Shown here: positions 29,845 through 37,952 of the stretch, one piece after another
How positions within the stretch are numbered: the stretch's first letter is position 1
How the letters are laid out: each line of letters begins with the position of its first letter
Source: an uncultured Sulfolobales archaeon
GTDB taxonomy: Archaea; Thermoproteota; Thermoprotei_A; Sulfolobales; NBVN01
Length of the DNA: 42,307 nt
Reading direction: 5' to 3'
Assembly: GCA_938045815.1 (NCBI GenBank)
Contig: CALIBI010000029.1
Coordinates: forward strand, 1 to 42,307
Translations under genes and position numbers: made by a program
Notes under the pieces: model-generated
What the model was told of the DNA's origin: nothing
The model's input: only the letters and a program-made list of their open reading frames with translations
The model's database searches: none

Positions 29845-31290
29845 GTGAAAATACCTCTTAAGAAGGTTAACGAGTATGAGTGGGAGATACCGTCCTCCTA
29901 CAAGAACTGCATGAAGGTACCGGCAGTAATATTCGCTGACGAATTCCTAATCTCTAAAATGATTGAAGACTTAACACTGGAGCAAGCAGCAAACGTGGGC
30001 TGCTTACCAGGTATTGAGAGAGCATCATACGTGATGCCTGACGGTCACCAAGGATACGGGTTCCCGATCGGGGGAGTTGCTGGTGTGAGGGCTGAGGACG
30101 GGTACGTATCACCGGGTGGGGTAGGTTACGACATCAACTGCGGTGTCAGACTACTGAGAACCAACCTAAGCTTAAGTGACGTGAAGGACAAGATCAAAGA
30201 TCTCGTTGACACGATCTTCAGGAACGTCCCATCAGGCGTTGGTAGTACGGGCAAACTAAAACTAAGCTTCACAGAACTAGATAGGGTCCTCAACGAAGGA
30301 GTTGATTGGGCTATTAGTAGAGGGTTTGGTTGGGAGGAAGACAGAGAATACATAGAGAGTTACGGCAGGATAGAATACGCTGACGCCAGCAAAGTAAGCA
30401 ACACAGCTAAGTCTAGAGGTGCTGACCAGCTAGGCACCCTGGGGGCAGGAAACCATTTCCTGGAGATCCAGGTCGTCGACAAAATATATGATGAGAAGCT
30501 AGCTAAGGCTATGGGCATAGACCACGAAGGACAGATAACCGTAATGGTTCACACAGGTTCTAGAGGATTAGGACACCAGGTAGCGAGCGATTACTTAGGT
30601 GTTATGGAGAAAGCTATGCGTAAGTACGGGTTCACACCACCAGACAGAGAACTAGCTTCAGTACCCTTCAACTCTAGAGAAGGTCAGGACTACTTCAAAG
30701 CTATGGCAGCCGCCGCAAACTACGCGTTCACTAACAGACAAATAATAACTCACTGGGTAAGAGAATCCGTAGCCAGGGTATTCGGAACGAAGCCCGAGAA
30801 CCTTGACTTGAGAGCAATATACGACGTAGCACACAACATAGCCAAGCTAGAAGAACATGAGGTGGAGGGCAAGAAAGTAAAGCTAGTGGTGCACAGGAAA
30901 GGCGCTACGAGAGCTTTCCCGCCAGGACACCCCGAAATACCTAGAGCATACAGAAACATAGGGCAACCAGTCCTAATACCCGGGTCTATGGGGTCAGCCA
31001 GCTACTTAATGGCGGGGATCCCGGAAGGCAAGAGAACATTCTACTCAGCAGCTCACGGAGCAGGTAGGTGGCTCTCCAGGAACGAAGCACTAAGAAGAAG
31101 TAGAGCCGACGCAGTACTAAACAAACTACTCAGCTCAGGGATCTACGTGAAAGCAACCTCTAAAGAAACAGTAGTGGAGGAGATGCCGGAAGCATACAAA
31201 GACGTTGACAGAGTCGCTCTAGTATCTCATAAAGTCGGCATAGCAACCCTAGTAGCTAGGATGCGACCCCTCGGAGTAGTTAAAGGATAA
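29845..31290 (+). CDS. rtcB: RNA-splicing ligase RtcB
   Basis: GTP-dependent ligase that joins 2',3'-cyclic phosphate ends to 5'-OH ends. In archaea it seals tRNA exons after intron removal. The sequence has PDGHQGYGFPIGGVAG, GGVGYDINCGVR (metal ligands D96 and C99), LGTLGAGNHFLEIQ and SAAHGAGR, with His404 as the guanylated residue, the same number as in Pyrococcus. At 481 aa it is intact and intein-free. It starts at GTG 29845 and is divergent from the ribosomal operon. Two intron-bearing tRNAs lie in this window. Confidence 0.97.
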   Translation: MKIPLKKVNEYEWEIPSSYKNCMKVPAVIFADEFLISKMIEDLTLEQAANVGCLPGIERASYVMPDGHQGYGFPIGGVAGVRAEDGYVSPGGVGYDINCGVRLLRTNLSLSDVKDKIKDLVDTIFRNVPSGVGSTGKLKLSFTELDRVLNEGVDWAISRGFGWEEDREYIESYGRIEYADASKVSNTAKSRGADQLGTLGAGNHFLEIQVVDKIYDEKLAKAMGIDHEGQITVMVHTGSRGLGHQVASDYLGVMEKAMRKYGFTPPDRELASVPFNSREGQDYFKAMAAAANYAFTNRQIITHWVRESVARVFGTKPENLDLRAIYDVAHNIAKLEEHEVEGKKVKLVVHRKGATRAFPPGHPEIPRAYRNIGQPVLIPGSMGSASYLMAGIPEGKRTFYSAAHGAGRWLSRNEALRRSRADAVLNKLLSSGIYVKATSKETVVEEMPEAYKDVDRVALVSHKVGIATLVARMRPLGVVKG

Positions 31291-32394: not shown

Positions 32395-32495
32395 TGGTGG
32401 GCCCGCGGGGATTCGAACCCCGGACCGCCCGGTTATGAATCCCGTAGGTCTCAACGACCTATGCCGGGCGCTCTACCTGGCTGAGCTACGGGCCC
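32395..32495 (-). tRNA. tRNA with CAU anticodon (elongator Met or Ile2), intron-bearing
   Basis: The minus strand folds as acceptor GGGCCCG/CGGGCCC, D-arm GCTC/GAGC, anticodon stem CCCGG/CCGGG and T-stem CGGGG/CCCCG with TTCGAAT loop. Discriminator A73 and an encoded CCA follow. After removing 24 nt the anticodon loop reads CTCATAA. The anticodon CAT fits elongator tRNA-Met or the AUA-reading tRNA-Ile. The D-loop length and GCCCGG stem resemble elongator Met, while the GGGCCCG acceptor with A73 resembles tRNA-Ile. I could not decide. Confidence 0.93.
32439..32462 (-). other. 24-nt non-canonical tRNA intron (between positions 32 and 33)
   Basis: A bulge-helix-bulge can be drawn: exon CCCG pairs with intron CGGG (4 bp). 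The 3-nt bulges are GCA and ATT, and a 6-bp inner stem TAGGTC/GACCTA closes a 5-nt loop. Cutting after the second base of each bulge gives exactly the 7-nt loop CTCATAA. The outer exon helix is missing, so it is a relaxed form. The usual site is 37/38. Confidence 0.82.
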
Positions 32496-32520: not shown

Positions 32521-32531
32521 GTTTTTAAATT
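32521..32531 (-). promoter_or_regulatory. TATA box of the CAU tRNA gene
   Basis: AATTTAAAAAC on the minus strand lies 26-36 bases before the tRNA 5' end, the spacing expected for a transcript that starts at or near the mature 5' end. Confidence 0.65.
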
Positions 32532-32603: not shown

Positions 32604-32831
32604 ATGCCTCTAAAAGTAAAGGTTGACTGGAATCTCTGCATAGCTGACGGCGTGTGTTACGCATTATGTCCTCAAGTGTTTGAGGCAGGGCCTGACGGTA
32701 AAGCCCAAATAATTAAGGAGTACAGAGGTAGCCACGTTACTGAGGGCATAGTACCTGACGACTTATCTGATTGTGTGGAGCAAGCTAAGACAGCGTGCCC
32801 TGTAGGAGCCATATCCGTTGAGAAAGCTTAA
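32604..32831 (+). CDS. [4Fe-4S] ferredoxin with Asp ligand
   Basis: A small electron carrier of 75 aa for oxidoreductases such as archaeal 2-oxoacid or aldehyde oxidoreductases. The cluster motif is C12-x2-D15-x2-C18 with C65 in ACPVGAI. Asp replaces the second Cys, just as in Pyrococcus furiosus ferredoxin. C22 and C57 match the disulfide pair of that protein. ATG 32604 follows GTGGTGA, and a TATA element (CATATTTA) lies about 50 bases upstream. It stands alone as a single-gene unit. Confidence 0.95.
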   Translation: MPLKVKVDWNLCIADGVCYALCPQVFEAGPDGKAQIIKEYRGSHVTEGIVPDDLSDCVEQAKTACPVGAISVEKA

Positions 32832-32956: not shown

Positions 32957-33415
32957 ATGGGAGAAACAAAAACAAAAATAAGTGATTTAAAACCCGGAAT
33001 GAACGGAGTTAGTCTCGTAGCACGTGTGATTAGCGTAGAACCCTCAAGAACCATAAGCACGAGATCCGGACTCAGAACAATCACCGAAGCAGTAGTGGGA
33101 GACGAAACCGGGAAAGTTAAGCTAACTATGTGGGGTAAAGCACTAACAAGCAAACTCAAAGAAGGAGACTCAATAGAGATCAGGAACGCCTGGACAACAG
33201 CGTTTAAGGGAGTAGTCCAGCTCAACGTTGGGGGAGAAGAAAACATAAGAGTAGGTTTAGAAGAAGCTTTACCGGAACCTGAAAAAATACCGGAGAAATA
33301 CCCACAAGCACCAGAGGGTTATAGACCGGAGCGTAGAGGGGCTCCAAGAAGATTCCAGAGACCTAGGAGACCCTACAGGAGAGAAAGATCTACAGACTTC
33401 AGCGAGGAGGAGTGA
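32957..33415 (+). CDS. ssb: Single-stranded DNA-binding protein, crenarchaeal OB-fold type
   Basis: A 152-aa protein with one OB-fold (about residues 5-105) and a flexible tail rich in Arg and Pro ending in acidic DFSEEE. This is the layout of Sulfolobus SSB and RPA-like archaeal SSBs. Core features are KISDLKPGMNGVSLVARVI, VGDETGKVKLTMWG and GDSIEIRNAWTTAFKG. It would protect ssDNA in replication, repair and transcription. The stop is followed one base later by the TTG start of the PqqD-like gene. Confidence 0.9.
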   Translation: MGETKTKISDLKPGMNGVSLVARVISVEPSRTISTRSGLRTITEAVVGDETGKVKLTMWGKALTSKLKEGDSIEIRNAWTTAFKGVVQLNVGGEENIRVGLEEALPEPEKIPEKYPQAPEGYRPERRGAPRRFQRPRRPYRRERSTDFSEEE

Positions 33416-37833: not shown

Positions 37834-37952
37834 TGGTCCCCCGGGAGGGATTCGAACCCCCGACCCCCCGGTTCCTGCCGGAGGACATGTTTCGATTCTG
37901 TGCCCTCCGGGGCTGACTACAGCCGGGTGCTCTACCGCTGAGCTACCGGGGG
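37834..37952 (-). tRNA. tRNA-Tyr (GTA), intron-bearing, CCA encoded
   Basis: The minus strand folds as acceptor CCCCCGG/CCGGGGG (C1-G72, as usual for archaeal tRNA-Tyr), D-arm GCTC/GAGC, anticodon stem CCCGG/CCGGG, loop CTGTAGA after intron removal (anticodon GTA), T-stem GGGGG/CCCTC with loop TTCGAAT, discriminator A and CCA. The 44-nt intron lies at 37873-37916. Confidence 0.95.
37873..37916 (-). other. 44-nt tRNA-Tyr intron at the canonical site 37/38
   Basis: Exon CTGT can pair with intron GCAG (one G-T pair). The 3-nt bulges AGT and GAA would be cut after their second base, giving the loop CTGTAGA. Inside the intron CCGGAGG pairs with CCTCCGG as a long stem. An unpaired CAGCC on one side makes the fold less regular than usual. 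Confidence 0.78.

What the first reader, a model, noticed from the sequence alone, without database searches (positions are those of the whole stretch)
32395..32495. Small tRNA intron at position 32/33 with a relaxed splice motif
The intron is 24 nt and splits the anticodon loop right after its first base. The fold uses the anticodon-stem bases CCCG for the splice helix, so the pre-tRNA cannot form its anticodon stem and the splice motif together. The outer helix is missing. Such introns need the heteromeric crenarchaeal splicing endonuclease.
Basis: partly seen in the sequence, partly recalled or inferred. Interest (0 to 1): 0.5.

Follow-up and report, generated by a model that had tools for sequence, protein, structure and literature searches.

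The report
Archaeal tRNA intron, split in relatives
This archaeal isoleucine tRNA gene carries a small intron at an unusual place; that is a known kind of intron, but in close relatives the same gene is broken at exactly that point into two separate genes, which makes the family a good place to study how tRNA genes come apart.

Summary
Confirmed. The minus strand of 32395-32495 is a tRNA gene (Rfam 55.2 bits) with a 24-nt intron between positions 32 and 33. The splice helix CCCG/CGGG reuses anticodon-stem bases and has no outer helix (relaxed HBh' type). By body sequence the tRNA is tRNA-Ile2(CAU), not Met (68 of 74 identical to the genome's own tRNA-Ile(GAT)). The intron hairpin covaries across 13 distinct versions (63 of 65 pairs standard; shuffles at most 53). 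The genome has both EndA-type subunits, and the ligase RtcB lies in the window. So the window gene is an ordinary noncanonical archaeal tRNA intron.

What goes beyond the finding: at this junction, of 25 readable genomes of the family, 11 have a cis intron, 7 have two half genes with complementary trailer and leader, and 7 have nothing there. The split genera do not form a clade (AU p = 9.5e-5), although two of them share an almost identical joining helix. In the same family the initiator tRNA is encoded in two or three pieces. No RNA data were available.

The parts
32395..32495 (-). tRNA-Ile2(CAU) gene with encoded CCA (32397-32395)
   Evidence: RF00005 55.2 bits over 32398-32495; ARAGORN with introns; 68 of 74 identical to own tRNA-Ile(GAT), against 48 of 75 to iMet and at most 59 of 74 to eMet
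32463..32495 (-). 5' exon, tRNA positions 1-32
   Evidence: sequence; C32 in all intronless orthologues read
32439..32462 (-). 24-nt intron at 32/33
32398..32438 (-). 3' exon, positions 33-73
   Evidence: sequence
32465..32468 (-). CCCG: anticodon-stem bases 27-30, 5' strand of the central splice helix
   Evidence: sequence; energies
32441..32444 (-). CGGG: intron side of the central splice helix; present in every intron-bearing or split orthologue read
   Evidence: part of the patterns used, so not an independent test
32456..32461 (-). TAGGTC: 5' strand of the intron hairpin (h')
   Evidence: covariation
32445..32450 (-). GACCTA: 3' strand of the intron hairpin (h')
   Evidence: covariation
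32522..32529 (-). TATA-like box TTTAAAAA, 27-34 nt upstream of the tRNA
   Evidence: same element as the consensus found upstream of 25 Ile2 genes, this one included; no experiment
29845..31290 (+). RtcB, tRNA-splicing ligase, 1.1 kb from the tRNA gene
   Evidence: PF01139, E = 1.5e-175
32604..32831 (+). ferredoxin-like gene; neighbour of Ile2 or of an Ile2 half in 10 of the family's 11 genera (not g8)
   Evidence: the name ferredoxin is by eye
32957..33415 (+). OB-fold single-strand-binding protein gene; also a neighbour in g1, g2, g3, g5, g9, g10 and g11
   Evidence: PF21473

Best explanation
A cis intron in tRNA-Ile2(CAU). [quoted passage not shown] The two-subunit EndA cuts after C32 and before U33; the anticodon stem then re-forms, and RtcB, encoded in the window, joins the exons to give loop CTCATAA. 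Shown: anatomy, comparative junction, covariation, presence of the enzymes' genes. Inferred: cutting, joining, and the conformational switch. In related genera (g5, g9, g11) the same junction is, by inference from gene layout, served in trans: two separately encoded halves whose trailer and leader pair in place of the intron hairpin.
For: Rfam and ARAGORN calls (3, 15); junction supported by invariant C32 and variable last intron base; hairpin covariation 63 of 65 pairs, shuffle mean 37.6, maximum 53 in 5000; two EndA-type genes in this genome and at least two matches in 26 of 31 family genomes (the five with one are G008, G020, G021, G023, G045); catalytic Tyr, His, Lys and loop Lys conserved in 29 of 29 catalytic-type subunits; RtcB. 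Split state: 5' and 3' halves in 7 genomes; halves on opposite strands about 4.5 kb apart in G016 and on different contigs in G021; 3' half upstream of 5' half in g9. So one linear cis precursor in normal order is excluded for g9 and for G016.
Against: No RNA data. The predicted ensemble of the full pre-tRNA at 80 C favours the anticodon stem (about 0.90) over the splice helix (about 0.05). The literature warns that predicted junctions can differ from real ones (S. tokodaii tRNA-Met(CAU-1), PMC4307357, passages). The central helix itself shows no covariation, because its 5' strand is fixed by the anticodon stem. TATA-like boxes before the 3' halves are clear in g9 and g11 but weak in g5 by the matrix used.
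Confidence: 0.93

Rival explanations
1. The junction is shifted by one base (after G31; loop TTCATAA) or lies elsewhere in the loop.
For: A one-base shift also leaves a seven-base loop with U33; predictions have been wrong before (PMC4307357, passages).
Against: C is the 5'-side base in 20 of 20 loci and equals base 32 of 11 of 11 intronless orthologues, whereas the 3'-side base is A, T, C or G. A cut after the second bulge base gives the unshifted junction.
Confidence: 0.05
2. The gene is a tRNA-Met (elongator or initiator).
For: Anticodon CAT; ARAGORN names it Met.
Against: The genome has a separate elongator-type CAT tRNA (L020) and an initiator encoded as two halves (L100, L120); the body is 68 of 74 identical to own tRNA-Ile(GAT), 48 of 75 to iMet, at most 59 of 74 to eMet.
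Confidence: 0.03
3. For the relatives: the split genes arose at least twice, independently, by breakage inside a longer ancestral intron hairpin whose stem survives as trailer and leader.
For: Parsimony on the tree needs two cis-to-split changes (g9; g5+g11); split genera are not a clade (AU p = 9.5e-5; g9+g10 in 60 of 60 bootstraps); an inherited stem explains the g5/g9 helix likeness (14 of 15, one base-pair indel).
Against: No cis relative with such a long stem of that sequence was found; the cis hairpins read are mostly 4-7 contiguous pairs and differ in sequence. g5 in the tree is a composite of G021, G016 and G008.
Confidence: 0.5
4. For the relatives: one ancestral split, followed by fusion back to a cis intron in g10 and in g1+g2, or transfer of the halves between g5 and g9.
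For: The trailer and leader of g5 and g9 are nearly identical (0 of 5000 shuffles as good on either strand), g11 resembles them weakly (2 to 12 of 5000); g9 and g10 are sisters. Fusion of halves was proposed for ancient tRNAs in PMC2237900 (passages).
Against: Needs three changes rather than two; the first six pairs of g5 recur in a Njordarchaeota MAG, so part of the likeness may be convergent.
Confidence: 0.25

Closest known systems
Noncanonical archaeal tRNA introns with relaxed BHB (HBh') motif
   Same: short intron outside 37/38, 4-bp central helix, one helix missing, (alpha beta)2 EndA with loop lysine (PMC4090602 sections 4 and 7; PMC6379350 passages)
   Different: position 32/33 is not among the positions listed in the section read (that list ends in 'etc.'), so the position may well be known
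Nanoarchaeum equitans split tRNA-Gln(UUG), joined at 32/33
   Same: same junction, in trans (Table 1 of PMC3218864)
   Different: other tRNA and phylum; the window gene is contiguous, only its relatives are split
Recently split tRNA-Asp and tRNA-Lys of Desulfurococcales (Aeropyrum, Thermosphaera, Staphylothermus)
   Same: split genes with nearby halves, joining helix of 13-14 bp, proposed recent origin (PMC3218864, parts 1-3 of 5 read)
   Different: here cis, split and absent states occur at one syntenic locus of one family, in tRNA-Ile2
Tri-split tRNA-Gly of Caldivirga maquilingensis
   Same: three separately encoded pieces; compare the initiator tRNA of G012, G023, G046 and G008 here
   Different: initiator tRNA rather than tRNA-Gly; breaks at about 30/31 or 37/38 and at 59/60; expression shown for Caldivirga, not here

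Membership tests
Archaeal BHB tRNA intron (noncanonical) | removing the insert leaves a normal tRNA | tested here: met
   RF00005 over model 1-71 of 71; spliced form 68 of 74 to own tRNA-Ile(GAT)
Archaeal BHB tRNA intron (noncanonical) | central 4-bp helix between splice-site bulges | tested here: met
   CCCG/CGGG with GC^A and AT^T (sequence; energies); also in the relatives read
Archaeal BHB tRNA intron, strict hBHBh' form | outer helix next to the second bulge | tested here: not met
   no pairing possible between the bases 5' of CCCG and CATAA; hence relaxed HBh' (sequence)
Archaeal BHB tRNA intron (noncanonical) | paired intron structure under selection | tested here: met
   63 of 65 standard pairs in 13 distinct versions, shuffle maximum 53
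Archaeal BHB tRNA intron (noncanonical) | cut by (alpha beta)2 EndA and joined | not testable with these tools
   genes present only
Split (trans-spliced) tRNA: the window gene | halves encoded apart | tested here: not met
   exons 24 nt apart in one gene
Split (trans-spliced) tRNA: orthologues in g5, g9, g11 | halves encoded apart, with complementary trailer and leader | tested here: met
   14 bp in g9, 14-15 in g5, with one bulge in g11
Split (trans-spliced) tRNA: orthologues in g5, g9, g11 | own promoter for the 3' half | tested here: inconclusive
   best TATA-like site in the top 0.25% of positions in g9 and top 0.02% in g11, but top 0.5-5% in g5; in g11 the best site lies only 25 nt before CGGG, next to the leader, with further A+T-rich sites upstream
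Split (trans-spliced) tRNA: orthologues in g5, g9, g11 | halves transcribed and joined | not testable with these tools
   no RNA data
tRNA-Ile2(CAU) | CAU anticodon on an Ile-type body, distinct from both Met tRNAs | tested here: met
tRNA-Ile2(CAU) | agmatidine at C34 by TiaS | not tested

The most novel reading that the evidence does not exclude
In this archaeal family tRNA gene breaks run in both directions: the 32/33 intron of tRNA-Ile2 became a split gene and, in g10 and in the lineage of the window (g1+g2), halves were fused again into a cis intron, while the initiator tRNA of the same family keeps changing between cis introns, two pieces and three pieces, even within one genus (g9).
Probability: 0.18. 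Interest if true: 0.85.

Novelty: new member of a known kind. Interest (0 to 1): 0.58.

Why it matters
The intron itself is of a known kind. Its orthologues matter more: one junction at one syntenic locus is absent, cis or split within a single family with a resolvable tree. Whether split tRNA genes are primitive or derived, and whether introns and splits turn into each other, has been argued from scattered cases (PMC3218864, PMC4033280, PMC2237900); here it can be tested by comparison. The essential initiator tRNA of the same family appears to be encoded in two or three pieces in several genomes.

Tried and rejected
Met identity of the tRNA: rejected. Chance hairpin: rejected (one search held one mis-parsed row, G006, corrected). 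Permuted-gene reading for g9, where the 3' half precedes the 5' half: disfavoured, since a few hundred bases and a TATA-like box lie between the halves; not excluded for g9 without RNA. For g5 the halves lie on opposite strands (G016) or different contigs (G021). Single long intron in g11 (halves in normal order, about 180 nt apart): not excluded; a read-through precursor is possible, as discussed for A. pernix tRNA-Asp in PMC3218864. The first tree (2012 columns) did not reject a clade of the split genera (AU p = 0.116); the larger one (4384 columns) did (p = 9.5e-5). tRNA-Trp, not among the 45 Rfam matches, was not looked for. Njordarchaeota MAG contig L112 was not checked for misbinning.

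Counts left out: of 31 family genomes, Ile2 was not read in six (G008, G041, G042, G043, G044, G045); of 15 genomes of other families, Ile2 was read in seven, all intronless. The covariation count uses 23 rows, 10 of them repeats of another row in the 12 bases compared.

Full report
Observation. The minus strand of 32395-32495 is a tRNA gene. Rfam's tRNA model matches 32398-32495 at 55.2 bits. ARAGORN without introns misses it; with introns it reports a CAT tRNA with a 24-nt intron. The intron is 32462-32439.

Junction. In 11 of 11 intronless orthologues and in 3 of 3 orthologues with only a 37/38 intron base 32 is C. In 20 of 20 intron or split loci where it was read the 5' exon ends in C, while the base before U33 on the intron side is A8, T7, C7, G1 of 23. 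That fixes C32 to the 5' exon.

Identity. The genome holds three CAT tRNAs: an elongator-type one (L020), an initiator (L100 and L120), and this one. Spliced, this one matches own tRNA-Ile(GAT) at 68 of 74, the initiator at 48 of 75, and the elongator at no more than 59 of 74 whichever of six splice points is taken. It is therefore tRNA-Ile2(CAU). Agmatidine and TiaS were not tested.

Structure. As isolated arms the splice fold and the anticodon stem plus hairpin differ little (-14.3 and -13.6 kcal/mol at 37 C, -2.4 and -0.9 at 80 C). In the full pre-tRNA the 37 C optimum is neither, and at 80 C the ensemble gives the anticodon stem about 0.90 and the splice helix about 0.05. So if the enzyme uses the splice fold, it captures a minor conformer or acts during folding; this is inference. 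Selection on the intron hairpin is shown by comparison: 23 rows, 13 distinct, first five pairs standard in 63 of 65 cells; re-pairing of strands among the 13 gave a mean of 37.6 and a maximum of 53 in 5000 shuffles. The rows are related, so the shuffle count is not a probability.

Enzymes. The genome has two proteins with the tRNA_int_endo domain. One (168 aa) is like solved archaeal subunits of the catalytic kind (2cv8_A, 3p1z_B); the other (198 aa) matches 5x89_A, 3p1z_A and 2zyz_A and has no His in the stretch where the first has its catalytic one. At least two matches occur in 26 of 31 family genomes. Tyr, His, Lys and the Crenarchaea-specific-loop Lys are conserved in 29 of 29 catalytic-type sequences; that lysine is needed for broad specificity in A. 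pernix (PMC6379350, passages). RtcB, the archaeal tRNA ligase by general knowledge, lies at 29845-31290 (PF01139).

Relatives. The window belongs to a family (f1, 31 genomes held) that includes Zestosphaera tikiterensis: its L107 has the same tRNA sequence as G005. Readable Ile2 genes: 25 of 31. Cis intron at 32/33: 11 (five of g1, one g2, two g3, three g10; g10 has a second intron at 37/38). No intron: 4 (g4, g6, two g7). Only a 37/38 intron: 3 (g8). Split at 32/33: 7 (four g9, one g11, two g5; g5 also has a cis 37/38 intron in its 3' half). A ferredoxin-like gene lies beside the gene or one of its halves in all genera but g8, so this is one locus. [quoted passage not shown] in g5 the halves are on opposite strands about 4.5 kb apart (G016) or on different contigs (G021); in g11 they are in normal order about 180 nt apart. 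A pattern for the 3' junction gave 14 loci in a scan of 84,980 named genomes: five with halves apart (L109, L110, L111, L115, L116) and nine cis, among them Tiamatella (Acidilobaceae in NCBI taxonomy) and one Njordarchaeota MAG. That pattern holds part of the central helix, so it finds only this kind.

Tree. Ten protein alignments, 4384 columns, 25 taxa, g5 as a composite. In 60 FastTree bootstraps: intron-bearing genera 60, g9+g10 60, g1+g2 60, six genera (g1, g2, g5, g9, g10, g11) 59, g3+g8 57, g1+g2+g9+g10 49, g5+g11 48. Clades of the split genera were rejected (g5+g9+g11 AU p = 9.5e-5; g5+g9 p = 4e-5); g5+g9+g10+g11 was not (p = 0.186). Two splits are the fewest changes. Yet the joining helices of g5 and g9 agree in 14 of 15 positions with one base-pair indel, better than any of 5000 shuffles. 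Either both broke inside a shared longer hairpin, or one split was followed by fusions, or halves moved between lineages. The data do not decide.

Initiator tRNA. In the same family the initiator is intronless (G005), has cis introns (g4, g6, g7, g8), or is encoded in pieces. Two pieces: own genome, G002 and G004 (on different contigs), G001 and G003 (in normal order, 190-280 nt apart), and G006 (broken at 59/60). Three pieces: G012, G023, G046 and G008, with 12-18 complementary bases at each break. Some of these pieces lie in normal order 0.75-1.4 kb apart, so that long read-through precursors are not excluded; in G012 the first piece is on the other strand. Published tri-split tRNAs in the papers I saw are tRNA-Gly of Caldivirga (PMC4033280 passages; PMC4090602 section 4).

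Literature. Searches listed no paper that by its title or abstract start treats split tRNA-Ile2 or a three-piece initiator tRNA; only open-licence papers are held, and most hits were seen as listings. Split at 32/33 is known from N. equitans tRNA-Gln (PMC3218864, Table 1). Read: PMC3218864 parts 1-3 of 5; PMC4090602 abstract and sections 4 and 7; passages of PMC6379350, PMC4033280, PMC2237900, PMC8450103, PMC4307357, PMC10714607 and PMC12397907.

Verdict. The window feature is a well-supported, ordinary noncanonical tRNA intron. The family around it is the interesting part.

Noticed in passing
own genome G000:C59 (L100) and G000:C15 (L120/L293): Initiator tRNA is encoded as two halves broken after the anticodon loop; trailer and leader share a 14-bp perfect helix (17 with G-U) and the 3' half has a TATA-like box by eye.
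   Followed up: yes
G012: L239, L285, L300; G023: L241, L287, L302; G046: L242, L288, L303; G008: L221, L270, L296: Initiator tRNA appears to be encoded in three pieces, with 12-18 complementary bases at each break; break positions differ within genus g9. No RNA data; some pieces are in normal order about 0.75-1.4 kb apart.
   Followed up: partly
G006: L237/L284 and L299: Initiator tRNA with a 3' piece broken off in the T loop (59/60), 17-base complementarity, besides cis introns.
   Followed up: partly
L048, L050, L057 (g10): tRNA-Ile2 with two introns, at 32/33 and 37/38.
   Followed up: partly
L112:2168: A Njordarchaeota MAG contig carries the same Ile2 intron position, with the first six hairpin pairs equal to g5; may be misbinned or convergent.
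   Followed up: no
37837-37952 (-): Second intron-bearing tRNA in the window, probably tRNA-Tyr(GTA) with a long intron of about 40 nt; ARAGORN calls it His.
   Followed up: no
own genome: No tRNA-Trp(CCA) recognised among the 45 Rfam matches; it may have a long intron or be split.
   Followed up: no
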